Below, in pieces: positions 6,122 through 39,410 of a stretch of DNA of 64,000 bases. A program made the position numbers and the translations under genes. This DNA comes from Gemmatimonadota bacterium (GTDB lineage Bacteria > Gemmatimonadota > Gemmatimonadetes > Longimicrobiales > Gaopeijiaceae). Position 1 is the first letter of the stretch. Each line of letters begins with the position of its first letter. The DNA lies in the NCBI GenBank assembly GCA_022827345.1, contig JAJDTB010000009.1, forward strand, positions 124,001 to 188,000, in the 5' to 3' direction. The notes under the pieces are model-generated. The model ran no database searches, was not told the origin of the DNA, and worked only from the letters and a program-made list of their open reading frames with translations.

Positions 6122-6599
6122 GGACATCCTGTCGTTGAGCTGGGTGAGTCGGCTGGATACCGGCTGAAACTGCTCCCAACTCGAGGATGCTGCCAAGACG
6201 GGACAGGACGGGGTCGATTCGACCGCTGCGACCATACCACTCACGTCACCCGGCAGCCAACTCGTCGAGTACGGGCGGTCGTAAACCACACCTGTTGCAC
6301 GACTTGCGAAGTCGTCAACGGACACCTGCGTTGCACACAACTTGCGACGTGTGCTATCGGCCCAGCATTCGATTGACATGCAGGCGCGCATCGCGCACAC
6401 ATCCGTACCGATTTGGTGTCCGGCAAGAAATCCATCTCGATGGTGTCAAGGGTCGATTGGCGAAACGAGTATAGCACAACGACAGCAGATGTCGCAAATT
6501 GACCGTCCGGGACCGGCTTGCCGGCATTTGGCGACCGGGCCCGCAACGCCGGAGATGACCATCAGAGTGGCCCTCCCGGGTGCCGCAGACGGGTGATCG
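6122..6599. other. Divergent intergenic region, 478 bp, no gene seen
   Basis: This gap separates the start of the M14 peptidase gene (minus strand) from the DUF1592 operon (plus strand), so it should carry promoters for both. It is less GC-rich than its neighbours. Short frames crossing it have no homology I recognise and no ribosome-binding site. The central part holds the repeated palindromic motifs listed separately at 6295-6354. Confidence 0.6.
6295..6354. promoter_or_regulatory. Two repeated operator-like sites
   Basis: Two copies of TTGCAC-N(1-3)-ACTTGCGA start 36 bp apart, at 6295 and 6331. The first lies on a 7-bp inverted repeat, ACGACTT-GCG-AAGTCGT (6299-6315). The second lies in a 6-bp inverted repeat, GCACAC-N10-GTGTGC (6333-6354). 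The position between divergent genes suggests a regulator binding site. The regulator is unknown, and this is inference from pattern only. Confidence 0.4.
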
Positions 6600-9221
6600 A
6601 TGCGACTTCACGAGAGCACCGGGCGACGGCCGGCCGGAGCGAACCGGGCGGTCACCTTGCGGGAGCGCAGTCCGCAGGCCAATAGTAGGCGCATGAGGGT
6701 GGCGATCGCTGGTGCTGTTCTGGGGCTCGGGCTTGCCGTTTCCGACGACTCGGCCGGCCCGCAAGCCGAGTTGCGCGCGGACACGGATGCGCGGGACCAG
6801 CAGGCCGTATCGGCGATCGGACCCGCCACAGCGAATGTCGACGTGGCCGGCACCGAAAGCCCGGCCCTGAACGCTGTCGTCCAGCGGTATTGCACACGCT
6901 GTCACAACGGCCGGCAACTGCGCGGCAACCTCACCCTGGAGGGCTTCGACGTGGCCGCGGCGAGCGAGCAGGCGCCCACGGCCGAGAAGATGATTCGCAA
7001 GCTGCGCGCCGGAATGATGCCTCCCCCGGGCCAGCGCAGGCCGGCGGGCGACACGCTGCTGGCGCTCGTCGAGACGCTCGAGGAGGTCGTCGACGCCGCC
7101 GCGGCGCGCGATCCCGATCCGGGCACGCGCAGGTTCCAGCGCATGAACCGCCCCGAGTACGAGCGCGTCATCCGCGACCTGCTCGCCCTGGAGATCGACG
7201 CCGGCCGCTGGCTTCCGGCCGACACCTACCTGGGCGCCTTCGACAACATGTCGGATGCCCAGGGGCTGTCCACCACGCTCCTCGAGGCCTACCTGCGGGC
7301 GGCGACCGAGGTGAGCCGGCTGGCCGTCGGCAACCCGGCAGCGCTTTCCCGATCGGTAAAATACACCAACCCCATCGAGGTTTCCCAGCACGCCTGGGAC
7401 CACATCGAGGGCACTCCCTACGGCACCCGCGGCGGGATGGTCGTCACGCACGACTTCCCGGCGGACGGCGACTACGTGTTCACTGTGGGAACGCTCTTCG
7501 GCAGAGGCACCCGCGACCAGGACGTCGATCTCTCCATCGACGGCGAAGGAGTCGCGCTGCTCGCGCTGGAGCACAACGGCCGTTCCACGGTGCCGATCCG
7601 CACGGCCCCCATCTTCGTCCGCGCCGGCCAGCGGCAGTTGGCGGCGGCCTTCGTCCGCACCATCGAGGGGCCCTACGACGACCGGCTGCAGACCCCCGGC
7701 TGGTCGTTCGTGGGCGGCGAGGATTCCCAGGCCTGGGCCAACTACGGGATCACCGCCCTCCCCCACCTCAGCGAACTGACCGTCACGGGCCCGCACGAGG
7801 CGCTCGGAGTATCCGACACGCCCAGTCGCCGAGCGCTCTTCCACTGCCATCCGGAGCGCGCGGCGGCGGGAGGGTCCGCAGCGCCCCCGGTCGACGCGGC
7901 GACTGCGGCCCCGGAGGCAGCAGCAACGGGATCCCCCGGCGCACGCGAGTGCGCCCGTGACATCGTGACCCGGCTGGCGACCAGGGCATACCGGCGTCCC
8001 GTAACGGATGAGGATCTGGCAGGCCCGATGTCCTTCTACGATGAGGGCGCCGACGAGGGCGGCTTCGAGGTCGGCGTGCGCATGGCGCTGCAGGCGATCC
8101 TGTCCAGCCCGTCGTTCATCTTCCGCCTGGAGCGCGTGCCGAGCGAGGTCGATCCCGGCGAGAGCTACCGCCTGTCCGACATCGATCTCGCGTCACGGCT
8201 TTCCTTCTTCCTGTGGGCGACCGTCCCGGACGCCGAACTGCTCGACGCGGCCCGGACGGGACGGCTCTCGGAGCCCGCGGTGCTGGAGGCGCAGGTCGGG
8301 CGCATGCTGGCGGATCCGCGCGCCGAGGCGCTCGCCACGCGATTCGCCTCCCAGTGGCTCAGGCTGCAGGATGCGGAAGACAACCAGCCGGAGCCGTATC
8401 TGTACCCGGACTTCACCGGTCAGCTGCGCGAAGACATGGTCCGCGAGACGCGGCTGCTCTTCGACCACCTGGTCCGCGGCGACCGCAGCCTGCTCGAGTT
8501 GTTCACCGCCGACTACACCTTCCTGAACGACCGGCTGGCCCGGCACTACGGCATCCCGGGGGTCTCCGGCGGCCACTTCCGCCGGATTCGATACCCGGAC
8601 GAGAGCCGCCGGGGCGTGCTGGGCCACGGCAGCGTGCTGATGCTCACGTCCATGTCGGCGCGCACGTCGCCGGTGCTGCGGGGCAAGTGGGTGATGGAGG
8701 TCCTCATGGGCACCCCGCCGCCCCCTCCGCCGCCGAACATTCCCGAGTTCGATGCCACGGAAGCGGCCGTGGACGGACGGCTGCTGACCACCCGCGAACG
8801 GCTTGCGCTGCACACCAGCAATCCGACCTGCAACGCCTGCCACCGCTTCATGGACCCGATCGGGCTGGCGCTCGACGGGTACGATGTCACGGGGCGCGTG
8901 CGGGTGCGCGAGAACGGCGCCCCGCTGGACACCCGCGGCACCTACTACGACGGCACCGAGATCAGCACCCCGGCCCACCTGGTCGACGTGCTCATGAAGC
9001 GGCCGCTCCCGCTGGTGCGCAACTTCGCGTCGCACCTGCTGGCGTATGCGGTCGGCCGCCGAATGGAATACTATGACGGCCCGGCGATACGCGAGATTGC
9101 ACGCAGGGCCGAAGCCGACGGATACCGGATGTCGGCATTTATCCTGGGCGTGGTGCAGAGTGACGCCTTCGGCATGGCCCGCCCGCGGCCGGCCCCAGTA
9201 CAGGAGGAATCCACGCAATGA
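6600..9221 (+). CDS. DUF1592-family protein with two CxxCH haem motifs
   Basis: The 873-aa protein is exported (hydrophobic segment near residues 33-47). It carries the domain series typical of planctomycete-type DUF1587/DUF1595/DUF1592/DUF1588/DUF1585 proteins. An N-terminal cytochrome-like module has CTRCH at residues 98-102. The C-terminal DUF1585 part has CNACH at 744-748, followed by FMDPIGLALDGYD. ATG 6600 is given as the start; the ATG at 6693 (MRVAIAGAVLG) gives a more compact signal peptide and may be the true one. It overlaps the DUF1552 gene by 4 bp. These proteins are associated with periplasmic haem and electron transfer in this family, but no substrate is established. The two-haem prediction is from motifs only. 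Confidence 0.9.
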   Translation: MRLHESTGRRPAGANRAVTLRERSPQANSRRMRVAIAGAVLGLGLAVSDDSAGPQAELRADTDARDQQAVSAIGPATANVDVAGTESPALNAVVQRYCTRCHNGRQLRGNLTLEGFDVAAASEQAPTAEKMIRKLRAGMMPPPGQRRPAGDTLLALVETLEEVVDAAAARDPDPGTRRFQRMNRPEYERVIRDLLALEIDAGRWLPADTYLGAFDNMSDAQGLSTTLLEAYLRAATEVSRLAVGNPAALSRSVKYTNPIEVSQHAWDHIEGTPYGTRGGMVVTHDFPADGDYVFTVGTLFGRGTRDQDVDLSIDGEGVALLALEHNGRSTVPIRTAPIFVRAGQRQLAAAFVRTIEGPYDDRLQTPGWSFVGGEDSQAWANYGITALPHLSELTVTGPHEALGVSDTPSRRALFHCHPERAAAGGSAAPPVDAATAAPEAAATGSPGARECARDIVTRLATRAYRRPVTDEDLAGPMSFYDEGADEGGFEVGVRMALQAILSSPSFIFRLERVPSEVDPGESYRLSDIDLASRLSFFLWATVPDAELLDAARTGRLSEPAVLEAQVGRMLADPRAEALATRFASQWLRLQDAEDNQPEPYLYPDFTGQLREDMVRETRLLFDHLVRGDRSLLELFTADYTFLNDRLARHYGIPGVSGGHFRRIRYPDESRRGVLGHGSVLMLTSMSARTSPVLRGKWVMEVLMGTPPPPPPPNIPEFDATEAAVDGRLLTTRERLALHTSNPTCNACHRFMDPIGLALDGYDVTGRVRVRENGAPLDTRGTYYDGTEISTPAHLVDVLMKRPLPLVRNFASHLLAYAVGRRMEYYDGPAIREIARRAEADGYRMSAFILGVVQSDAFGMARPRPAPVQEESTQ

Positions 9222-10642
9222 ACTTCATTACCGGAATCCATTTGTCGCGCCGCACCTTCCTGCGGGGAGTCGGCACCTCCATGGCGCTGCCCCTCCTCGA
9301 TGCGATGGTGCCCGCCGGCAGGAGGTGGACCGATCCCATGCGGCGGTCCGAGTTCACCCGCCTAGTCTGCGTCGAGGAGTCGATGGGGGTCGCGGGATCG
9401 AGCGACTGGGGGGCGGCCCGGCATCTGTTCGCCCCGGCCAGCGCCGGAAGGAACTTCGAGCTGGTCGCGGACAGTCAGCTCAAGCCGCTGGAGCGCTTCC
9501 GCGATGTCATGACGATCGTCAGCAACACCGACGTGCGGGCGGCGGAACCCAAGCGGGCAGAGGAGATCGGGGGCGATCACGATCGCTCGACCGCGGTGTT
9601 CCTCACCCAGGCGCATCCGAAACAGACGCAGGGGTCGGACATCTTCCTGGGGACCTCGCTGGACCAGCTGCACGCCCAGCGCTTCGGGCGGGACACGGCG
9701 CTGCCCTCCCTGGAGCTGTGCATCGAGGGAATCGACCGGGGCGGCGGGTGTGCCTACAACTACCACTGCGCCTATACGACCTCGCTGGCGTGGGCGTCCC
9801 CGAACCAGCCGCTGCCCGCCATTCGCGAGCCCCGCGTGGTGTTCGAGCGACTGTTCGGCGCGGGCGACACGCCGGAGGACCGCGCCGCCCGTCGCAGGGC
9901 CGACCGCAGCATGATCGACTGGATCACCACCGAGGTGGCGCGTCTGCGGCGCGAGCTCGGGGCGGTGGATCGCCTCGCACTGGACGAGTACGTGGACCAC
10001 ATCCGCGAGATCGAGCGCCGCATCCAGCTGGTGGAGGCCCGCCATGCGACGGGCGAGGAGCGCGCCATGCCGGAGGCTCCGTCGGGCGTCCCGGATTCGT
10101 TCGAGGAGCACATGAAGCTCATGTTCGACCTGCAGCTGATCGCCCTGCAGGCGGATCTGACCCGCGTCATCACCTTCAAGACGGGGTTCGACCAGTCGAA
10201 CCGGACCTTCCCGGGCAGCGGCACGACCCGCTCCATCCACGGGGCGTCGCACCACGGCAATGTGGCCGACCACCTGATGGACTACCAGAAGATCAACACC
10301 TACCGGCTCTCCCAGCTCGGCTACTTCCTCGACAAGCTGCGCGCGACCACGGAGGTCGACGGCTCCCTGCTCGACAAGACCGCGGTCATCTGGGGATCGC
10401 CGATGGCGGACGGCAATCTCCACAATCACCGCCGGGCCCCGCTTCTGATGTTCGGGGGCGCCAACGGGGCGCTGGAGGGCGGGATACACGTGAAGGCTCC
10501 GGACGGGACGCCGATGGCGAACGCGTTCGTGACGCTGATGCGGAAGATCGGTCATCCCGACGTGGACACCTTCGGTGACAGCGACGGGGCGCTGCCGCTG
10601 GACTTTCCCGAGCAGGCGTCGCCGGCGCGGGGTGGGCCGTGA
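9218..10642 (+). CDS. DUF1552 family protein, Tat-exported
   Basis: This 474-aa protein starts at an ATG that overlaps the stop of the DUF1592 gene (ATGA). The N-terminus has a twin-arginine signal, SRRTFLRGVGTSMALPLLDA. The body matches the DUF1552 family, which is regularly encoded next to DUF1592 proteins. Recognisable segments include HDRSTAVFLTQAHPKQT, SMIDWITTEVARLRREL and a His-rich stretch (SIHGASHHGNVADHLMDY). The fold resembles alkaline-phosphatase or sulfatase-like exported proteins, but I see no complete catalytic metal site. It probably works in the periplasm with the haem-motif partner encoded upstream. The stop overlaps the GTG start of the ankyrin gene. Confidence 0.88.
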   Translation: MNFITGIHLSRRTFLRGVGTSMALPLLDAMVPAGRRWTDPMRRSEFTRLVCVEESMGVAGSSDWGAARHLFAPASAGRNFELVADSQLKPLERFRDVMTIVSNTDVRAAEPKRAEEIGGDHDRSTAVFLTQAHPKQTQGSDIFLGTSLDQLHAQRFGRDTALPSLELCIEGIDRGGGCAYNYHCAYTTSLAWASPNQPLPAIREPRVVFERLFGAGDTPEDRAARRRADRSMIDWITTEVARLRRELGAVDRLALDEYVDHIREIERRIQLVEARHATGEERAMPEAPSGVPDSFEEHMKLMFDLQLIALQADLTRVITFKTGFDQSNRTFPGSGTTRSIHGASHHGNVADHLMDYQKINTYRLSQLGYFLDKLRATTEVDGSLLDKTAVIWGSPMADGNLHNHRRAPLLMFGGANGALEGGIHVKAPDGTPMANAFVTLMRKIGHPDVDTFGDSDGALPLDFPEQASPARGGP

Positions 10643-12702
10643 GCACCCGGATCGCAGGCCCGGGAGCCGGCGGGGCGTCACGGCGGCGGCGAAGTCTCCG
10701 GGGCGTGGGCCGCGGGCTGCTGGTCCGGGCCGCCCTGGCGGGCGTGTTGCAGATGACGTTCGGCGTCGCGGACGGAGCGGCGGTCCAGGGGGTCGATCCG
10801 GCGGCGCTGGCCGAGCTGGCCGAGCTGGCCGCAGCCGAGAGGCTGGAGCTCCGCGACGATCTGCTGGAGGCTGCCCGGCTTGGCGACGCGGAGGCGGTCC
10901 GGGCCCTGCTGCGGGCGGGAGCGGACGCGAGCGCGGCGCGGGGCGACGGGATCACCGCACTCCACCTGGCGGCTGAACACGGACACGCCGGATCGGTCCG
11001 CGCGCTGCTCCACGCCGGGGCAGCGGTGGACGCCGGAACGCGGATCGGGCGCTACACGCCCCTGCACCTCGCCGCCCGCGGCGGCCACGACAACGCGGTG
11101 GCCCTCCTGCTGGACGCCGGCGCCGACCCGCGCGCCGAGACGACCAACAGCCGCGCAACCGCGCTCCACCTGGCGGCCGGAGCCGTGGGGGGCACGGCGG
11201 CCGTGGCCGCTCTGCTGGAGCACGGTGCCGACCCCGACGCGCGCGAGGCGTCCGCCGGCCAGACGCCGCTCTTCTTCGCGGCGGCAGCAAACCGGGCCGA
11301 GGCGATCGCGGTCCTCCTGGACGGCGGTGCCGACCCGGGCCTCACCACCAACGAAGTCGATGTGCTCCGCAGTCTGGCGCTCGACCGCGAATCGAGCCGG
11401 CGGTTCCGCCAGCGGCTCAGGCAGCCTCCCGAGGCAGCTGACCCATACGGCCCACAGCCGGCGACCCATACAACCCATACCGACGGACCCAGCCCTGCCG
11501 TAGTCCAGGCCGCGATCCATGCAGAGCGCGAGTTCCTGCGCTCCGGCCACGATGTCGGCCCGGTCGACGCCCGCTCCCTGGCGCGCGTCGGGGCCGACTA
11601 CCCGGGCGGCCCCGATGTCGTCCGGCCCCCGTACCGCGAGTCACTCGTCGGACGCACCGGCGGCATGACCGCGCTCCTCTACGCCGCCCGCGAGGGCAAC
11701 CGCGAAGCCGCCGCCGCGCTTCTGGACGGCGGCGCCGACATCGACCAGCGGAGCGCCGACGGCACCAGCCCTCTCCTGATGACCGCGCTCAACGGCCACT
11801 TCGACCTCGCTCTCGAACTCATCGCGCGCGGCGCCGACCCCAACCCGTCCGCCCTCACCGACGGCGCGACCCCCCTGTTCGCCGCCCTTCAGACGCAGTG
11901 GGCGCCCAAGTCCAACTATCCCCAGCCCCGCGCCCAGGACCGCCAGCGCGCCGGGCACATCGAGGTCGTGCAGGCCCTCCTCGAAGCGGGCGCCGACCCC
12001 AACCCCCGCCTCCACACCCATCTCTGGTACTGGGAATTCGGCCTCACCAAGATGGGGATCGACCTGACCGGAGCCACGCCCTTCTGGCGCGCCGCCTTCG
12101 CCCAGGACCTCGAGGCCATGAGGCTGCTGGTCGCCCACGGCGCCGATCCGAACATCCCCACCCGCTGGCCGGACGTCGGCATGCGGGAGCGCCGCCAGCA
12201 GGACGGCCGCCAGCAGGAGGACTCGGGCCTGCCCCACATCCCCCCGGGAGCCCCGAACGCCTGGCCCATTCACGCGGCCACCGGGGGAGGCTACCTGGGC
12301 CTGGGCGCGTTCAGCGTGCGCAATCGGCCCCGCCAGTTCATGGCCGCCGTGCGCTATCTGGTGGAGGAACTCGGCGCCGACGTCAATCACCGCGACTCGT
12401 GGCTGTATACGCCGCTCCACTACGCCGCCTCCCGGGGCGACAACGAGCTGATCGAGTATCTGGTGTCTCAGGGCGGGGATGTGAAGGCGATCACCCGCCT
12501 GGGACAATCCACCGCCGACATGGCGCGCGGCGGGCGAGCGGGGTTCTTCAAGCGCGTCGCATACCCCGAGACGCTGGATCTGCTGACGAGCCTGGGTTCA
12601 ACGCTCGAGTGCCTGCACACGCACTTTCTCGACACCGGCGACTTCTGCCCCGGCGCGGGAGTCGGCGATCCCTGGGCGCCCCGGACAGACGGCAGGCGAT
12701 AG
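10639..12702 (+). CDS. Exported ankyrin-repeat protein
   Basis: The 687-aa protein begins at a GTG that overlaps the upstream stop (GTGA). An N-terminal hydrophobic stretch (LLVRAALAGVLQMTFGVADG) suggests export. At least eight ankyrin repeats follow, for example TALHLAAEHGHAGSVRALLHAGA and TPLHYAASRGDNELIEYLVSQGG. They form an N-terminal block (about residues 70-240) and a C-terminal block (about 340-640), separated by a Pro-rich linker. Ankyrin repeats bind protein partners; the partners are probably the DUF1592 and DUF1552 proteins of the same operon. The last about 40 residues contain two Cys (ECLHTHFLDTGDFC) that could form a disulfide. No enzymatic domain is visible. Confidence 0.9.
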   Translation: MSTRIAGPGAGGASRRRRSLRGVGRGLLVRAALAGVLQMTFGVADGAAVQGVDPAALAELAELAAAERLELRDDLLEAARLGDAEAVRALLRAGADASAARGDGITALHLAAEHGHAGSVRALLHAGAAVDAGTRIGRYTPLHLAARGGHDNAVALLLDAGADPRAETTNSRATALHLAAGAVGGTAAVAALLEHGADPDAREASAGQTPLFFAAAANRAEAIAVLLDGGADPGLTTNEVDVLRSLALDRESSRRFRQRLRQPPEAADPYGPQPATHTTHTDGPSPAVVQAAIHAEREFLRSGHDVGPVDARSLARVGADYPGGPDVVRPPYRESLVGRTGGMTALLYAAREGNREAAAALLDGGADIDQRSADGTSPLLMTALNGHFDLALELIARGADPNPSALTDGATPLFAALQTQWAPKSNYPQPRAQDRQRAGHIEVVQALLEAGADPNPRLHTHLWYWEFGLTKMGIDLTGATPFWRAAFAQDLEAMRLLVAHGADPNIPTRWPDVGMRERRQQDGRQQEDSGLPHIPPGAPNAWPIHAATGGGYLGLGAFSVRNRPRQFMAAVRYLVEELGADVNHRDSWLYTPLHYAASRGDNELIEYLVSQGGDVKAITRLGQSTADMARGGRAGFFKRVAYPETLDLLTSLGSTLECLHTHFLDTGDFCPGAGVGDPWAPRTDGRR

Positions 12703-12747: not shown

Positions 12748-14952
12748 TCACTCTCCAAAACGCCGCGCCAGCAGGTATCGATACAGCTTCAACGCGAGCC
12801 GCTCCTCATCCTCCTCCAGCCGGTGCCGGGCGGCCGGCGTCAGCACCATCGTCTCGCACGGCATGTCCGCGCTCACCGTTGGCGGCTGCTTGTCCGAAGC
12901 GTCGACCGGCCAGATCGCATCACCCGGTCCGAACTGACGGACTCGCCTGCCCGCGGGGTCATGGGCGGAAGCCCGGCCGGAGGTCAGCAGCTGCAGGCCT
13001 TCGCTCGGCGCACCCGGCCCCGCGAGAACTTCCCCGGAAGAGTACAGGCGCGGATTCAGCCAGCTTCGGAGCTCGTCCACCAGGTCCTCGAAACGGGTGA
13101 GCCGCTCGAGCTGGCTGTCCAGGTCGGCGGCGGCCCGCTCCAGCACGGAGACGCGGTGCTCGTCGATCATGCCGGCGTTCGTTCTCCAGGCTTCGATGAC
13201 GATCTCCTCACAGTGTTCGAGCGCGCGGTCCGTATTCGGCTCGACCCGCAGGGCGGCAAACTCCGAGGGGGGGAGATTGCGTTCCAGACCGCTCCTCACC
13301 TGTTCCGACGGCCCGCTCAGGACCATCGTCACGCCGGCGGCACCGGCCGATTGCGTCAGCCTCACGAGGACGTTCACCGCCGAAAAGTCGAAACCGGAGA
13401 CGTCGGTGAAATCCAGCATGATGCAGGTGGGGCGCGGGTCGCCGGCAAGCGACTCCCTGAGCTTATCGGCGAGGGAGTAGACGCTTCCGAAGAAGATGTA
13501 GCCGCGCAGGCGCCAGACCAGCGCGCGGGCGCCCTCCTCCTGGAGGATGACCCGATCCGGGACGGAACGCGTCTTGGTACTGCGGAGTTCGCGCACCGTG
13601 ACGCGCGATCGGACGGGGTCCACGCGGCTGAGGCGCACGGCGAAGAACACGAGGGTGACCAGCATCCCGGCGCCCACGCCTTCGAATAGCCCGAACACCA
13701 CGGTGACGCCCGCGATCAGCACGATGACGGCGTACTCCGTCCAGGGGAGACGCCTCCGGGTGCTCACGAGCCCTCCGTCCAGCATGCCGAGTCCGGCGAA
13801 GAACAGGATGCCGCCCACGAGCGGTACCGGCACCAGGTTCAGCATTCCGTCGCCCAGAAACAGCGCGGCCCCGATGACGAGGGCCGCGACGATTCCGGTG
13901 AGGCGGGTGGCTGCCCCGAACAGCTTGCTGCGCAGCGACGCGGGCACGATCATGCTCGCGGTCGTGCCGCCGCCCAGGCCCGCCACCACGTTCGCGAGCC
14001 CGGTCGCGCGAAACTCGCGGTTCCAGTCCAGGTCCTGGTTCGCGGCCATCTCGAGGCCGGCGAAGTTCATGATCACCACGATCAGCGCGACCAGCACCAG
14101 CAGCAGAACGTCGGGGAACTGCACCGCCATTGCGGCCCAGTCCACATGCGCCAGATCCGCAGGCCCCAGCGCCGGCCACAGGTTTGCTTCGGAGGTGCCC
14201 GTCAGCAGGAGACCCGCCGCCCTCGCCTCGTCGCCGGAGATGCCGCGGAGCGCCAGCGCGAGGTGATATGCACCGGTGGCGACCGCGACGCCCACCGGCA
14301 GGATGAGCGGACGGCCCCACCGCTTCATGGCGAGGTACAGGGCGGCGCCGAATACCAGGCCGGGGCCCCACTTCCATAGCTCCGGCGGTTGCAGGAGCGC
14401 CGGAATCGCGGGCCAGTCCATCTCCGCTCCCATCAGGGACATGGCGGCGAGGCACACGACGCCCCCGATTCCGGCCACGAACCCGGCCGCGACCGAATAG
14501 GGGACGAAGCGCACCAGATTGGCGAGCCCGAATCGTCCGATCACGAGAAAGCACGCGCCGGCGGTGACCGCCCCGATCGTGAGCGCCCCCGCGGTGGTGG
14601 CGAACAGGGTGTCGCCCTCGGCGCCCATCGTGGCACCGACCTGCGCCATCACGATGACCAGCGCGGGAGACAGCCCGGAGATCGCTCCGCGAAAGCCACC
14701 GGCGAGCGCGATGACGAGGCAGGCGGCGAAATTTCCGAAGAGCACCAGGCCGATGCCCTGGGAGGAATACGGGCCGAGCGGTCCCGAGAATATCAGGCTT
14801 CCGTAGGCGACCTGGGCGACGAGCAGGGCGAGCCCCGAAGTGAAACCGGCTGCCAGGGCCGGAAAGGCCTTCGCCGAGACGGTGTCCGCACGAAGCTCTG
14901 ACGCGAGGTCGCGAAGCGCTGAAGTCACCGTCGTGGTCTCGTGCGAGAGCAA
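12748..14952 (-). CDS. SulP-family anion transporter with STAS and cyclic-nucleotide-binding-like domains
   Basis: The protein has about 734 residues. The first about 430 residues are a SulP/SLC26 membrane domain with roughly 12-14 hydrophobic segments, including NFAACLVIALAGGFRGAISG and a NFAGLEMAANQDLDWNREF segment. A STAS domain follows (IMLDFTDVSGFDFSAVNVL). A C-terminal cNMP-binding-like fold spans about residues 630-734 (SSGEVLAGPGAPSEGLQLLTSG). The phosphate-binding cassette FGExAL is absent, so it may not bind a cyclic nucleotide. The start is a TTG at 14952 with no strong ribosome-binding site; GTG 14928 is an alternative. Likely substrates are sulfate, bicarbonate or another anion. 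Confidence 0.85.
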   Translation of the reverse strand: MLSHETTTVTSALRDLASELRADTVSAKAFPALAAGFTSGLALLVAQVAYGSLIFSGPLGPYSSQGIGLVLFGNFAACLVIALAGGFRGAISGLSPALVIVMAQVGATMGAEGDTLFATTAGALTIGAVTAGACFLVIGRFGLANLVRFVPYSVAAGFVAGIGGVVCLAAMSLMGAEMDWPAIPALLQPPELWKWGPGLVFGAALYLAMKRWGRPLILPVGVAVATGAYHLALALRGISGDEARAAGLLLTGTSEANLWPALGPADLAHVDWAAMAVQFPDVLLLVLVALIVVIMNFAGLEMAANQDLDWNREFRATGLANVVAGLGGGTTASMIVPASLRSKLFGAATRLTGIVAALVIGAALFLGDGMLNLVPVPLVGGILFFAGLGMLDGGLVSTRRRLPWTEYAVIVLIAGVTVVFGLFEGVGAGMLVTLVFFAVRLSRVDPVRSRVTVRELRSTKTRSVPDRVILQEEGARALVWRLRGYIFFGSVYSLADKLRESLAGDPRPTCIMLDFTDVSGFDFSAVNVLVRLTQSAGAAGVTMVLSGPSEQVRSGLERNLPPSEFAALRVEPNTDRALEHCEEIVIEAWRTNAGMIDEHRVSVLERAAADLDSQLERLTRFEDLVDELRSWLNPRLYSSGEVLAGPGAPSEGLQLLTSGRASAHDPAGRRVRQFGPGDAIWPVDASDKQPPTVSADMPCETMVLTPAARHRLEEDEERLALKLYRYLLARRFGE

Positions 14953-15260: not shown

Positions 15261-16481
15261 ATGCACCGCCGCCAACGCCAGACCCTCGAAAACCGCCGCT
15301 TCTTCCGGGGGTGGCTTGTCGCGTGCCTCCTCGTCGCCGCCGGCGCGTGGGCGTGCAGTCCTGCTGCGGGAGATCGGGACGGCGGCAGCGGCCAGGGCGG
15401 AGGGGACGACCACAGCGGCGGGAGCGCGACGGTCGCCAAGGGCGGCGACGACCGCACCGGGCCGTACGATCCCGTGCCGGGATGGTGGAAGCCGGCGCCC
15501 GACCACGACGAAGAGTGGAGCTGGGGTCAGGTGGCGGGAGTGGCGGTGGATCACGCCGACCGGATCATCGTGGTGACGCGGGGCGACTGGCCCGCCGACC
15601 GGTCGCAGCCGCGCCAGGGCAGGCTGCGCCGCACCAACTTCGTCGTGGTGGCGAACGGCGACGGCGAGATCGTGGAGCAGTGGGCGCAATGGGACTCGAT
15701 CTTCACGCTGCCCCATCAGGTGTACATCAACCCGTACGACAGCGAGCGGCATGTGTGGGTCGTGGACAGCGGCGGCGGAGCCGGGCACATGCAGGTGGTC
15801 AAGTTCACCAACGACGGCAGCGAGATCGTCATGCGGCTGGGAGAGCGCGACCACCCCAAGACCCGCGCGGCCGCGCGCCAGCGCTTCGACTGGGGACCCC
15901 ACACCTACGGCTGGCCGTCGAAGCTGGCGTTCCTCCCCGACGGGACCTTCCTGCTGGCCGACGGATACTGGAACTCGCGCATCGTGAAGTACACGGAAGA
16001 CGGCGAGTTCATCATGGAGTGGGGCGCGCTCGGCGACGGCCCCGGCGAGTTCGATCTCCTGCACGGCCTCGCCGTCGATGAGGATCGGGTCTACGTCGGA
16101 GACCGCCAGAACGAGCGCCTGCAGCTGTTCACGCACGACGGCGAATTCATCGAGGAATGGCCCGGCATCTTCGACCCGGTCAACATCTGGATCGACGAGA
16201 ACCGGGCCGTGTGGGTGCTCGATGCAAGCCTGAACCGCATCCTCAAGTACGACCGCCAAGGGCGCCTGCAGGACTACTGGGGGGCGTACGGGAGCGCGGG
16301 CGCCATCGGGCGCGGCACCTGGCCGGGCGGGCTGTCGCTGCCACACCAGATGGACATGGACGACGACGGCAACCTCTACATCGCGTCCTACAGCGGCGGC
16401 TGGATCAACAAGTTCACGCCGAAGCCGGACGCGCCGGCGGAACGGCTGATCGGGCCGCGGCTCCTGCTGCCGGGGGAATAG
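15261..16481 (+). CDS. NHL-repeat beta-propeller lipoprotein
   Basis: This 406-aa lipoprotein has a signal peptide (WLVACLLVAAGAWAC, lipidated Cys at residue 32) and a Gly/Asp/Ser-rich linker to about residue 65. An NHL-type six-bladed propeller follows. Blade motifs include GVAVDHADRIIVV, HQVYINPYDSERHVWVVDSG, KLAFLPDGTFLLADGYWNSRIV, GLAVDEDRVYVGDRQNERLQ and HQMDMDDDGNLYIASYSGGW. Related propellers occur in peptidylglycine-lyase-like proteins, but no catalytic His/metal set is identified here, so a binding role is as likely. The stop codon (16479-16481) abuts the stop of the convergent fusion gene with no spacing. Confidence 0.88.
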   Translation: MHRRQRQTLENRRFFRGWLVACLLVAAGAWACSPAAGDRDGGSGQGGGDDHSGGSATVAKGGDDRTGPYDPVPGWWKPAPDHDEEWSWGQVAGVAVDHADRIIVVTRGDWPADRSQPRQGRLRRTNFVVVANGDGEIVEQWAQWDSIFTLPHQVYINPYDSERHVWVVDSGGGAGHMQVVKFTNDGSEIVMRLGERDHPKTRAAARQRFDWGPHTYGWPSKLAFLPDGTFLLADGYWNSRIVKYTEDGEFIMEWGALGDGPGEFDLLHGLAVDEDRVYVGDRQNERLQLFTHDGEFIEEWPGIFDPVNIWIDENRAVWVLDASLNRILKYDRQGRLQDYWGAYGSAGAIGRGTWPGGLSLPHQMDMDDDGNLYIASYSGGWINKFTPKPDAPAERLIGPRLLLPGE

Positions 16482-19400
16482 CTACCGCCCGGTCTCCTCA
16501 CCCGGCCGGTATCGCCTGATCGTCTGGCGGGCGATCTCTTCCTCGGTCCACGCCACCGCCTTCAGTTCTCCCCGCGCGAACAACGCGGCCTGGTCGGCGA
16601 AGTGGGGCGATTCGGTCCGCGCCGTCTGTCCGTAGGCAAGGACCGTGTAGGCCCGGGGAATGTCCTCGAACTCGACCAGCAGAACCCAGGAGTCCCCGCG
16701 GTTGGCCGCCCTCCGGCCGTCGTCCCTCTCCTCGTAGGACACGACGCGGAAGCAGCCCAGCGTGGGCGGGCAGCCCGACACCGGCACGTCGACGTCCGCG
16801 CGGATCACGCGATGCACCTCGCCCCAGGCGATGTCGAGCGCAATCCCGTCGTCGCGCATCGACCGGGCTGCCGCGGCGAGGGCCTCGCGGGCCGCAGCCG
16901 GATCTTTCAGACCGGCAGGAGTGTCCACCGGCCGCTCCGGGTCCCACTGCCGGGCCCACCGAAGCGAGTCGGGGGCGGCGACGAAGTACTCGGCCGCCCA
17001 GCGCTCGAAGAGTACGCCGCCCCGACTTTCCGCCGCAGCGGTGCGGTCCCAGGCGGCCAGAACCGCCGCCGCCTCGTCCAGGCCGTCCTCTCCGCCCGCG
17101 CCCCGCGCTCCATCCGCACCCGGGTCCTCGCCTGCCCCGGTTGCCGCGGCCAGAAGGTCGTCCATCACCCTCTCCGCCATGAGCATCCGCGGCGAATGCT
17201 TGAGCCGGATCACGTCGTCCATGTCGACGCGCCCCGCACCCTCGGCCAGCTCCAGCGACAGCTGGCTCCGCAGGCGCAGCCTCCGCTCCGGCAGGTTGTG
17301 CGGCACCGTGTCGCGGTCCATGGGCACGCTGAGGTTCGTGTAGTCGGGCGGGTCGTTGGCCTGCTGGACGTACCCGCCGGGCGGATTGAGGTAGAGCGGC
17401 AGGTCCTCCCACGCCACCAGTTCCGACCACATGTCGGCGCTCGAAGCCGCGTGCGCAGCCGTGTCGCCGGTGACCGGGTGGGGGAGCAGCGGCAGCCGGG
17501 CGTTGTAGTAGTGCGCGATGTTCCCGTCCCGGTCGGCGTAGGTGAAGTTCGAGGTGGGATGGGCGCGCATCCGCATGACTTCGAGCCACTCGTCGAGGTC
17601 CTCCGCCATCATCATCCGCATGAACTGCTCGCCGCGGCGGAACTCGCCGTCGCGCGGATCCTTCAGCAGGTAAACGTGCTCGCCGGTGCGGTGGATCACG
17701 GGCCCGTGCGGCGTGTGCCAGGTCGTCCGCGTCTCGAACGCGGTGCCTCCGTCGGCGGTCCGGTAGTCCACGCTCACGTCGCGCCGGGTCAGCGGCAGGG
17801 GCCGCCCGTCGAGGACCGCATGGTCGGCCAGGTCGGGATGCGCGTCCAGCCGATACACCTGCGACAGCGTCGGGTAGTTGTTGGTCGTCGCCCAGCCGAG
17901 CCGCGGATTGAAGCCGCCGATGATCCCGAACGCCGTCCCGATCCGGAAGTCCCCGTAGAAATCGATCACGCCGGGCACGCGCACGTGCGCCTCGTAGTAG
18001 GTGAGCCCGGAGGGACGGTCGAGCAGATCGTGGTCCCCCTCCCAGCGGAGGTGGGGGTTGCGGAGGAGGATCGGCCGCCCCGACTCGGTGCGCGAACCGT
18101 GAAACGCCCAGGCGTTGGAGCCGTCGAGGAGGAAGGATGGGGTGGGCTCCTGCGACCGTGCGCCTGCCGCAGCGTCATCGGGTTCCGCGCCCTCGGCCCG
18201 CAACCGCGCCACGAACCGTGCCGCGTCCCCGCGGCTCCAGGTCTGCACGTCGCGGGCGAGGGCGTCGACACCCGTGAAGTCCGGCTCGATCCAGGGCGGA
18301 TACTCGTCCGGGTGGAGGCGGATGTAGTGGTTCACGCCATCGGCGAAGCCGCGGTAGATGTCGCGGGTGCGCGGGTCGAGGCGGTGGAAGGTCGCCACGG
18401 CGCGGGCGTGGCCGTCGCGGGCCGCGAAATCGGCGGCGAGTTCATCCGGGCCGAGGTGGCGGGCGAGGGTGCCGCGGCTGGCCACCATCCCGACCGCGAT
18501 CGAAGCGCCGTAGTCCTCCGACTGCACGTAGCCGAGCGCGAACCCCATGGCCTTGAGGTCTTCGGCGAGGATGTGGGGGATGCCGTATTCTGTGCGGCGG
18601 ACCTCGACCCGGCGCGCCAGGGCGGCAGCGGTGTCGGGGGTCTGGGCCACGGGGACGGGAGACACCACCTCGGCGCTCTGTATGATGGCGCCCTCCTGCA
18701 CGGCATCGACGACCTCCATCCCCTCCACAACCTTCCCGTAGATGGTGTAGTTGAAGTCGAGGCGCAGGTTGTCGACCAGGTTGATGAAGATCTGTGCGTC
18801 GCCGGTGTCACGGCCGCGGGTGGAGAGGCCGACGGTGCCGCGCCAGTGGGCCGCGCCGCTGATCTCGTCGCGGCTGTAGGGGCCGTCGCCGGAGTACTCG
18901 TTGGCGTTGGGGCTGCCGCCCTGGATGACGAAGTTGGGTTCGACGCGGTGGAAGGTGAGGCCGTCGAAGTGGCCCTCGGCGGCGAGGCGGGCGAAACGGT
19001 CGGCGTTGGTCGCGGCGAGATCGGGGCGGAGCGCAATGACGATGTCGCCGAGCCCGGCCATGTGGAGGACGACGGCGGAGCGTTCGAGGTCGCGGAAGCG
19101 GGTGGCGGTGGGGGTGGGGGTGCGGGGCGGCGGTTGGGGCGCGGCCTGGTGGGCCTCGCCGGTGGCTTCGGTGAGGAGCGCGGCGGCGCGCTCGGCGATG
19201 ACGGGATCGAAGTCGGTCAGGTACGGGGCGAGGTCGTCGCGGCTGAAGCCGCCCACCGCGCCGATGCCGTCGAGGAGCGCGACGCGCACGTCCCGCTCCG
19301 TCTCGCGCTGCGCGGCGGAGAAGCGGGCGAGGGCGGAGAGGAGCGGGGGCACAGGGGCGTCGGCGCCGGCGCGTGCGACGAGCAGGCGGGTGGCGGTCAT

Positions 19401-20762
19401 GACCAGCTGCGGGTCGTCCGCCTCGAGCTGGGCGGTGTAGATGTCGGTGAGGTCGGGCGGCGGAGCAGCTCCGGCCTCCGTCGCGGCGGCGAGGCCACGG
19501 AGTGCGGCCTCCCGCACGTTGGGGGTCGGGTCGGTGGCGAGCTGCGTGAGCGTGCCCCGGTCTCCGGTCACGCCCGCGGCCCGCGCCGCCCAGGCTCTCG
19601 CGAAGGGGTTGGCGTGGGAGGCGAGGCGCGCGAGGTCCTCCGCGGCCGCTTCGGGTGCGATCGCGGCGAGGGCGTACAGTGCGCGGGCGGGGGCATGCCA
19701 GTCGGCGTCCGGGTCGCCCAGCCCGGCGATCCGGGCCCGGAGCGCGGCCACCTGCGCGGCGCGGTCGGGGCAGGGACGCGCGGCCAGGCCGATCGCCGTC
19801 GCCGCGACGTGCGGGTTCGAGTCATCCATCGCGGCGACGATCGCGTCGCACCCGGCCTCGGGGCGCAGCCGCCGGTCGAAGGCGGCGAGCGCATCGACCC
19901 GGACGCGCCAGTGCGGGTCGGCGAGGCCCGCGGGGACCACCTCGGCGGCAGCCGTTCCATGCCGGGCGGCGGCGATCACGGCCTGTCGGCGCACGCCCCA
20001 GTCGGAATCCTGCTGGAGCGCCTGGACGGCGTCGGCGTCGATCTGGCCGGTGGCGACGAGCGCGGCTGCCGCGAGGCGCCTCACCCGGGCGGCAGCCGTG
20101 GCCGCGTTGCCGCCGCTGGCCGCCTCCACCCTGGACAGCGACCCCACGACGGCGACGAGTTCATCGCTCAGCCGTCCGTCGGGCTGGATGGTCCTGGCGA
20201 AGGCATCGATCCCGCGGGCGAGCCCCACATGACCGATCAGCCCGCGGTCGTCCGCAGCCGACGGAAGACGGGCGGCAGCTCGAACCAGCGCCGCGTCGGT
20301 CTCGGCCCGGGCGGCAGGACTCCCCGGAGCGATGCGTCCCAGGTTGGTCGCGAGGCTGCCCAGCACCGCCGGGTCCGTTTCGACATCGATCCGCGCCGCG
20401 AGCGCACGCGCGGCCGCCTCCGATGGCTCGCCGAAGACTGCCTGCGCCATCGCCGCGGCCGCGGTGGCCCGCACCGACACATCGTCGTCGTCGAGGAGCT
20501 CGCCGATGCGCTCGAGTTGTCCCGGATCCTCCAGGCGCCCGAGCGCGCGCACGGCCAGCCTGCGAACGGCCGGGTCATCGCTCGCGAGGTGGTGGCCGAT
20601 GCGGTCGAGGCCGTTCTCGCCCCGCGCGTCCTCCTCCGCCACGATCTCGGCATGGGCGGCGTGAAGGTCACCGGCGGCATCCCCGCAGGCGAACAGGGTG
20701 AGGGCGACGCAGGTCAGCGCGAGACACGGACCTGCAAGCGTGATCGCCGAGCTTGTTTTCAT
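16482..20762 (-). CDS. HEAT-repeat / cyclophilin / penicillin acylase fusion lipoprotein
   Basis: A single 1426-aa frame joins three modules. A lipoprotein signal ends in ALTLFAC (Cys26). HEAT/PBS-type repeats fill about residues 45-540, for example DDPAVRRLAVRALGRLEDPG. A cyclophilin peptidyl-prolyl isomerase domain spans about 555-700, with FHRVEPNFVIQGG and AQIFINLVDN. A penicillin acylase (Ntn-hydrolase) domain runs from about 715 to the end: it begins VEVRRTEYGIPHI, has the nucleophile in DGSNAWAFHG (Ser882), then RNPHLRW and GWATTNNYPTLSQVY. The start ATG overlaps the stop of the upstream alkyltransferase-like gene (ATGA, 20759-20762). Family knowledge predicts autocatalytic cleavage before Ser882. 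The acylase has no signal of its own; export would depend on the N-terminal lipoprotein signal. The substrate is unknown. Confidence 0.87.
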   Translation of the reverse strand: MKTSSAITLAGPCLALTCVALTLFACGDAAGDLHAAHAEIVAEEDARGENGLDRIGHHLASDDPAVRRLAVRALGRLEDPGQLERIGELLDDDDVSVRATAAAAMAQAVFGEPSEAAARALAARIDVETDPAVLGSLATNLGRIAPGSPAARAETDAALVRAAARLPSAADDRGLIGHVGLARGIDAFARTIQPDGRLSDELVAVVGSLSRVEAASGGNAATAAARVRRLAAAALVATGQIDADAVQALQQDSDWGVRRQAVIAAARHGTAAAEVVPAGLADPHWRVRVDALAAFDRRLRPEAGCDAIVAAMDDSNPHVAATAIGLAARPCPDRAAQVAALRARIAGLGDPDADWHAPARALYALAAIAPEAAAEDLARLASHANPFARAWAARAAGVTGDRGTLTQLATDPTPNVREAALRGLAAATEAGAAPPPDLTDIYTAQLEADDPQLVMTATRLLVARAGADAPVPPLLSALARFSAAQRETERDVRVALLDGIGAVGGFSRDDLAPYLTDFDPVIAERAAALLTEATGEAHQAAPQPPPRTPTPTATRFRDLERSAVVLHMAGLGDIVIALRPDLAATNADRFARLAAEGHFDGLTFHRVEPNFVIQGGSPNANEYSGDGPYSRDEISGAAHWRGTVGLSTRGRDTGDAQIFINLVDNLRLDFNYTIYGKVVEGMEVVDAVQEGAIIQSAEVVSPVPVAQTPDTAAALARRVEVRRTEYGIPHILAEDLKAMGFALGYVQSEDYGASIAVGMVASRGTLARHLGPDELAADFAARDGHARAVATFHRLDPRTRDIYRGFADGVNHYIRLHPDEYPPWIEPDFTGVDALARDVQTWSRGDAARFVARLRAEGAEPDDAAAGARSQEPTPSFLLDGSNAWAFHGSRTESGRPILLRNPHLRWEGDHDLLDRPSGLTYYEAHVRVPGVIDFYGDFRIGTAFGIIGGFNPRLGWATTNNYPTLSQVYRLDAHPDLADHAVLDGRPLPLTRRDVSVDYRTADGGTAFETRTTWHTPHGPVIHRTGEHVYLLKDPRDGEFRRGEQFMRMMMAEDLDEWLEVMRMRAHPTSNFTYADRDGNIAHYYNARLPLLPHPVTGDTAAHAASSADMWSELVAWEDLPLYLNPPGGYVQQANDPPDYTNLSVPMDRDTVPHNLPERRLRLRSQLSLELAEGAGRVDMDDVIRLKHSPRMLMAERVMDDLLAAATGAGEDPGADGARGAGGEDGLDEAAAVLAAWDRTAAAESRGGVLFERWAAEYFVAAPDSLRWARQWDPERPVDTPAGLKDPAAAREALAAAARSMRDDGIALDIAWGEVHRVIRADVDVPVSGCPPTLGCFRVVSYEERDDGRRAANRGDSWVLLVEFEDIPRAYTVLAYGQTARTESPHFADQAALFARGELKAVAWTEEEIARQTIRRYRPGEETGR

Positions 20763-21073
20763 CCGTGCGGGTCCCAGCCGAATCGTTCCCACGATGCTTC
20801 CCCCTGTTCGTCGAATTCGATGCCTTCGTGCTCCAGCAGGGCTCTCTGGCGCTGGGCCACACCGTTGATGCGCGAAGTGGAGATGGCGCCGCGGCGGTTG
20901 ACCACGCGCCACCAGGGCACGTCGGTGTCGATCGGGAGGTGGCTCAGGGCGTATCCGACGCCGCGGGCTGCGCGGGGCTGGCCGACGAGGGCGGCGACGC
21001 CTCCGTAGTTGACGATGCGGCCCTTCGGGATGCGGCGGACGCAGGTGTAGACTCTCTCGGAAAACGCGGTCAT
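20759..21073 (-). CDS. Alkyltransferase-like (ATL) DNA-damage binding protein
   Basis: This 104-aa protein is a single-domain homologue of the O6-methylguanine-DNA methyltransferase DNA-binding domain. It contains RVYTCVRRIPKGRIVNYGGVAALVG, whose arginine-finger and helix-turn-helix region matches the family. The active-site PCHR motif is replaced by PWWR, so the acceptor Cys is Trp. That substitution defines ATL proteins, which bind alkylated guanine without repairing it and hand it to nucleotide excision repair. I chose the ATG at 21073 because homology begins there; an open frame extends to 21250. It overlaps the fusion gene by 4 bp, although the two have no evident functional link. Confidence 0.85.
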   Translation of the reverse strand: MTAFSERVYTCVRRIPKGRIVNYGGVAALVGQPRAARGVGYALSHLPIDTDVPWWRVVNRRGAISTSRINGVAQRQRALLEHEGIEFDEQGEASWERFGWDPHG

Positions 21074-39193: not shown

Positions 39194-39267
39194 GGGGCCG
39201 GTGCAGTTTGGGCGCTGCCGCCGGATTCGCGAATCCGGTCGCGGGGGTTCGATTCCCCACGGCTCCA
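39194..39267 (+). tRNA. Degenerate tRNA-Ala-like gene (CGC anticodon)
   Basis: A 74-base cloverleaf can be drawn. The acceptor arms GGGGCCG and CGGCTCC pair with a G3-U70 wobble, the identity mark of tRNA-Ala (also of tmRNA). The D arm is GCAG-N8-CTGC. The anticodon arm is the perfect palindrome CCGGATTCGCGAATCCGG, which forces an 8-base loop. The T loop TTCGATT sits on a stem with a G-A mismatch. No CCA is encoded (CTC follows). It is more likely a decayed or element-carried tRNA than a standard gene. Confidence 0.4.
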
Positions 39268-39410
39268 CTCTCTTTGTTCTCACGATGTCCAACAAGTTGG
39301 ACGATGGGCTCAATGGCCGGTTGCCGCAAGGGAAGGAGGCTAACAGGTAGCGACAGCTCTCCCCCGGACACATGGGGAATCAAGATGCCGTGGCCGAAGG
39401 GCTGACACCA

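What the first reader, a model, noticed from the sequence alone, without database searches (positions are those of the whole stretch)
16482..20762. HEAT repeats, cyclophilin and penicillin acylase fused in one lipoprotein
One uninterrupted frame carries a lipobox, HEAT repeats, a complete cyclophilin domain (FHRVEPNFVIQGG) and a penicillin acylase with its SNAW nucleophile at Ser882. Penicillin acylases normally have their own signal peptide and mature by self-cleavage, so a folding-enzyme domain directly upstream could act as a built-in chaperone. I know of no described protein with this order.
Basis: partly seen in the sequence, partly recalled or inferred. Interest (0 to 1): 0.75.

Follow-up and report, generated by a model that had tools for sequence, protein, structure and literature searches.

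The report
Foldase lipoprotein fused to acylase, repeatedly
A Gemmatimonadota bacterium carries one long gene in which a lipid-anchored HEAT-repeat/cyclophilin protein is joined to a penicillin-acylase-type enzyme; most of its close relatives keep the two as neighbouring separate genes, and the join has happened independently at least three times in this one genus, which suggests the two proteins work together at the cell envelope.

Summary
Lipoprotein signal, HEAT repeats, cyclophilin and a GL-7-ACA/PvdQ-type Ntn acylase (GSNAW, Ser882) form one open frame, and no frameshift or stop is seen near residue 705. In the same genus, 14 of 17 genomes with a readable junction have the two halves as adjacent separate genes, mostly with a 4-bp stop/start overlap, and the acylase has its own signal peptide. 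Only three are fused: the window's genome, G017 and G015. Each fused gene sits beside unfused sisters and has its own breakpoint, and one origin is rejected (AU p = 4.9e-7 on the acylase tree, 0.017 on the HEAT-cyclophilin tree). Each fusion removed the first stop codon and the acylase signal peptide and left both domains whole. No fusion was seen outside the genus. Most likely the fusion tethers a previously soluble, exported acylase to a lipid-anchored HEAT/PPIase platform through a short flexible linker. The 'built-in chaperone' idea is possible but unproven: each half also occurs without the other, and one genome has an in-place acylase swap. New architecture made of known parts.

The parts
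16482..20762 (-). fused gene, 1426 aa: lipoprotein signal - HEAT - cyclophilin - Ntn acylase
20688..20762 (-). signal peptide residues 1-25 (lipobox LFA|C)
   Evidence: sequence; equivalent Cys in nearly all orthologues
20685..20687 (-). Cys26, predicted lipidated cysteine
19161..20678 (-). HEAT-repeat alpha-solenoid, about residues 29-534
   Evidence: HEAT_2, HEAT; model (helical throughout, pLDDT mostly above 90; PP2A A subunit, importins)
18645..19070 (-). cyclophilin domain residues 565-706 (R606, F611, Q614, Q657, F659 conserved; Tyr672 at the H126 position)
18621..18665 (-). fusion junction residues 700-714 (SPVPVAQTPDTAAAL); sister G009 has a stop, a GTG start and a signal peptide here
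   Evidence: pLDDT below 50 at 702-708
16530..18608 (-). acylase domain residues 719-1411 (GL-7-ACA acylase/PvdQ/MacQ fold)
18132..18188 (-). probable spacer loop before the self-cleavage site, residues 859-877
   Evidence: pLDDT below 50; position like the spacer of GL-7-ACA acylase (inference)
18117..18119 (-). Ser882, predicted N-terminal nucleophile of the beta chain
18051..18053 (-). His904, equivalent of His23-beta
20759..21073 (-). upstream gene: alkyltransferase-like (ATL) protein, PF01035; its TGA overlaps the ATG of the fused gene (ATGA); the atl-HEAT-cyclophilin pair is conserved, also where no acylase follows
15261..16481 (+). convergent NHL-repeat protein; its stop abuts that of the fused gene; the same downstream neighbour is seen in G009, G002, G013 and G015

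Best explanation
An operon atl - heat-cyp - acylase, in which the last two genes were separate, lost the stop codon of heat-cyp and the start and signal peptide of the acylase by an in-frame deletion. The product is exported as one lipoprotein, is anchored through Cys26, and probably self-cleaves before Ser882. That would leave a HEAT-cyclophilin-alpha chain holding the catalytic beta chain. The main effect is to tether an acylase that was soluble in the sister lineages to the membrane and to a HEAT/PPIase platform with fixed stoichiometry. Shown: adjacency, three independent fusions, breakpoints, intact catalytic residues, purifying selection. Inferred: lipidation, self-cleavage, tethering as the benefit. 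The natural substrate is unknown (an acyl amide, given the relatives).
For: One frame with three domains. Unfused adjacent genes with own acylase signal peptides in 14 of 17 genomes. Sister G009 (95% identical acylase, same flanking genes) is unfused. One origin rejected, p = 4.9e-7 (acylase) and 0.017 (HEAT-cyclophilin). dN/dS 0.1-0.3. Junction modelled as flexible. Anchoring of the acylase arose by another route too: acylases of G005, G011, G020, G022 and several order-level relatives carry their own lipobox. No second orthologue in the genome (next acylase hit 27%).
Against: No data on expression, lipidation or cleavage. All three fused genomes appear to be metagenome assemblies. G015 is cut at its 5' end and has a frameshift near residue 1332. 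The lipobox has Phe at -2. Most unfused acylases of the genus are not lipoproteins, so anchoring is not generally required.
Confidence: 0.55

Rival explanations
1. Built-in foldase: the HEAT-cyclophilin part, made and exported first, binds and isomerises the acylase precursor in cis and speeds folding and self-cleavage. Fusion improves on an earlier trans-acting helper.
For: Gene order and mostly 4-bp overlap put the helper first; three independent fusions; cyclophilin active-site residues conserved; FkpA raised penicillin acylase production in E. coli (PMC2642769).
Against: Both parts occur without the other across the phylum; HEAT-cyclophilin kept without acylase in G003, G010, G014; clade-swapped acylase in G016; cyclophilin residues equally conserved in unfused proteins.
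Confidence: 0.2
2. Nearly neutral fusion: genes that overlap by 4 bp with reading frames one base apart fuse easily by small deletions; because heat-cyp already supplies export, loss of the acylase signal peptide costs nothing, and the fused forms come and go.
For: Fused forms are at tips beside unfused sisters; both halves keep the same constraint as unfused pairs; no fused clade of several species; G015 shows a frameshift.
Against: Three separate events among 17 genomes, all leaving both domains whole, with the fused G017 gene still under constraint at dS about 0.8 from unfused G001 (the date of its fusion on that branch is unknown). No background rate was measured.
Confidence: 0.2
3. Assembly artefact: a misassembled deletion joins two genes.
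For: The fused genomes appear to be metagenome assemblies; reads were not available.
Against: Three independent assemblies with different, in-frame breakpoints; the G000 junction holds bases absent from G009; flanks syntenic on both sides; G017 comes from an Illumina-PacBio hybrid assembly (bin94, coverage 190x; PMC5649159).
Confidence: 0.05

Closest known systems
GL-7-ACA acylase / cephalosporin acylase (1keh, 3s8r)
   Same: Best solved relative of the acylase half: phmmer 6e-72; Foldseek TM (target) 0.86, 28% identity; Ser1, His23 and the Asn equivalent conserved
   Different: No N-terminal HEAT or cyclophilin; begins with its own signal peptide (from knowledge of the family); the residue aligned with Arg57-beta (glutaryl carboxylate site, from memory) is not Arg, so the substrate probably differs
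PvdQ and MacQ acyl-homoserine lactone acylases
   Same: Same Ntn fold; NCBIfam PvdQ model matches over the whole acylase half
   Different: 219.8 bits against a cut-off of 950; about 24% identity; not fused
HEAT-cyclophilin lipoproteins of Gemmatimonadota
   Same: Full-length homologues (37-58% outside the genus) as one gene in many genera of the class
   Different: End about two residues after the cyclophilin in the unfused genus members; no acylase attached
Thermus thermophilus penicillin acylase
   Same: Membrane-anchored at its N-terminus on the outer face of the inner membrane (PMC3461476)
   Different: Anchored by its own signal-anchor, not by another protein
Dual-family immunophilins (cyclophilin fused to FKBP)
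   Same: Natural cyclophilin fusion (PMC6316441 abstract)
   Different: Partner is a second PPIase, not a hydrolase

Membership tests
Penicillin amidase family (PF01804, Ntn hydrolase) | family profile above gathering score | tested here: met
   376.6 against 21.3 bits, nearly full length
Penicillin amidase family (PF01804, Ntn hydrolase) | Ser/Cys nucleophile after Gly, with catalytic His and Asn | tested here: met
   G881-S882-N883, H904, N1072 conserved in all rows aligned
Penicillin amidase family (PF01804, Ntn hydrolase) | self-cleavage into alpha and beta chains | not testable with these tools
   only a low-confidence loop before Ser882 is seen
PvdQ (NF051460 equivalog) | score above curated cut-off | tested here: not met
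   219.8 against 950
Cyclophilin PPIase (PF00160) | family profile above gathering score | tested here: met
   103.7 against 21.7 bits
Cyclophilin PPIase (PF00160) | catalytic Arg and proline-pocket residues | tested here: met
   R606, F611, Q614, Q657, F659 invariant in 20 orthologues; Trp121 and His126 positions differ (Arg/Leu, Tyr)
Cyclophilin PPIase (PF00160) | isomerase activity | not testable with these tools
   needs an enzyme assay
HEAT repeat protein | HEAT profile and alpha-solenoid | tested here: met
   HEAT_2 76.3 against 27.7 bits; solenoid model matching PP2A A subunit and importins
Bacterial lipoprotein | signal peptide ending in a lipobox Cys | tested here: inconclusive
   LTLFAC at 21-26, Phe at -2 atypical; Cys at the equivalent place in nearly all orthologues with a readable N-terminus; no dedicated predictor available
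Intramolecular chaperone | required in cis for folding of its partner | not testable with these tools
   comparative genomics argues it is not strictly required

The most novel reading that the evidence does not exclude
The HEAT-cyclophilin lipoprotein is a maturation platform for envelope Ntn acylases. Evolution has repeatedly turned a two-gene foldase/client pair into a cis foldase fused to its client, so the genus and its relatives form a natural series (unlinked, adjacent and overlapping, fused) in which folding in cis and in trans can be compared.
Probability: 0.2. Interest if true: 0.7.

Novelty: new variant of a known kind. Interest (0 to 1): 0.45.

Why it matters
No paper found here describes a HEAT-cyclophilin-acylase protein. 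More telling than the single protein is that the same two genes fused at least three times in one genus while close sisters keep them apart. That is a Rosetta-stone type sign of a functional link between an envelope PPIase and an Ntn acylase, and it gives matched fused and unfused pairs (95% identical) in which to test what fusion changes: localisation, maturation rate or nothing.

Tried and rejected
Frameshift or stop at residue 705: none. Single ancestral fusion: rejected by the AU tests. Fusion elsewhere: none in the genomes drawn from the order and phylum; large open frames upstream of the acylase in G043, G087, G065 and G118 were read and look like non-coding frame at high GC. Viral contigs: no relatives. 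Plasmids: no record covers 80% of the query, and the best rows match the acylase half only. Alignment A2, mixing cyclophilin-only and acylase-only rows, was misaligned and dropped. The model of residues 541-1426 has a poor cyclophilin part because few rows cover it, so packing of the two domains cannot be judged.

Full report
WHAT IS THERE. The coordinates are right but the strand is minus. The complement of 16482-20762 gives 1426 residues from ATG to TAG. The opposite strand is open too, so length alone proves little at this GC. Third-position GC stays at 0.77-0.97 along the minus frame and through the junction. Pfam gives HEAT repeats, cyclophilin (565-706) and penicillin amidase (719-1411), each far above its cut-off. 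The acylase half is closest to GL-7-ACA acylase by sequence and by predicted fold (1keh, TM 0.86). Ser882, His904 and Asn1072 align with its catalytic residues and are invariant in relatives.

THE SAME GENES IN RELATIVES. The genus holds 23 genomes. Named records place it in Gemmatimonadota, some labelled Longimicrobiales; one fused member, G017, is bin94 from the sponge Aplysina aerophoba (PMC5649159). Seventeen genomes have a readable junction. In 14 the HEAT-cyclophilin gene ends about two residues after the cyclophilin domain, and the acylase follows on the same strand in another frame, mostly with ATGA or GTGA overlapping its stop, and with its own signal peptide. Two of the unfused cases (G001, G021) are single-contig chromosomes. 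In three genomes (G000, G015, G017) the frame runs through. Three further genomes (G003, G010, G014) have HEAT-cyclophilin and no acylase orthologue.

THREE FUSIONS, NOT ONE. G000 is sister to unfused G009 (acylase 95% identical, same flanks). G015 groups with unfused G013 and G002. G017 groups with unfused G001, G004 and, in the acylase tree, G016. Three changes are needed on both trees, and holding the fused rows together is rejected (p = 4.9e-7 on the acylase, 0.017 on HEAT-cyclophilin). Junction DNA agrees: the breakpoints differ and each fused acylase start matches its own sisters. Linkers are SPVPVAQTPDTAAAL (G000), VRSTDPAIAL (G017) and RSDTATAL (G015). All three deletions removed the stop and the signal peptide and kept both domains complete.

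WIDER SETTING. In samples from the order (146 genomes) and the phylum (200 genomes), HEAT-cyclophilin and the acylase are both common, but no fusion and no neighbouring pair was listed outside this genus; the one case noticed on a shared contig, G177, is about 80 kb apart. Adjacency is thus a derived trait of the genus and fusion a further step. Upstream lies an ATL protein gene overlapping by ATGA; atl plus HEAT-cyclophilin also stand together without the acylase. G016 carries a HEAT-cyclophilin of the G000/G009 group and an acylase of the G001/G004 group, an apparent in-place swap.

HOW IT MOST LIKELY WORKS. Shown: single frame, intact catalytic residues, purifying selection on both halves (dN/dS 0.1-0.3; the comparison includes time before the fusion). 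Predicted: a HEAT solenoid followed by cyclophilin, a linker at 702-708 and a loop at 859-877 with very low confidence. Inferred: export as a lipoprotein, self-cleavage before Ser882, and a HEAT-cyclophilin-alpha chain holding the beta chain at the membrane. Tethering is preferred over a foldase role because anchoring of this acylase also arose by a simple lipobox in G005, G011, G020, G022 and some other genera, and because each part works, or at least persists, without the other. A membrane-anchored penicillin acylase is known from Thermus (PMC3461476). The foldase reading keeps some weight: FkpA, a periplasmic PPIase/chaperone, is reported to enhance penicillin acylase production (PMC2642769).

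NOVELTY. Each part belongs to a known family, and PvdQ equivalog membership was tested and not met. The three-part architecture and its repeated origin were not found in the papers searched; that library is open-access only, so absence is weak. I rate it a new variant of a known kind.

Noticed in passing
L050 (G016), 6164-10641: HEAT-cyclophilin and acylase of G016 belong to different clades: an in-place replacement of the acylase within the operon.
   Followed up: partly
L049 (G015), near 2729-2753: Frameshift near residue 1332 of the fused protein: assembly error or early decay.
   Followed up: no
window 20759-21073 (-): ATL-type DNA-repair protein gene translationally overlapped with an envelope lipoprotein gene, a pairing conserved in the genus and in G049 and G140.
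   Followed up: partly
window 6600-12702 (+): Gene trio: PSD/PSCyt3 multidomain protein (DUF1592/1588/1585/1587), DUF1552 protein, ankyrin-repeat protein.
   Followed up: no
window 15261-16484: NHL-repeat gene and fused gene converge with no bases between their stop codons (TAG then CTA).
   Followed up: no
window 12748-14952 (-): SulP-type transporter with STAS domain and a further C-terminal region not matched by Pfam.
   Followed up: no
window 39194-39268 (+): ARAGORN tRNA-like hit with a four-base anticodon (cgcg), probably false.
   Followed up: no
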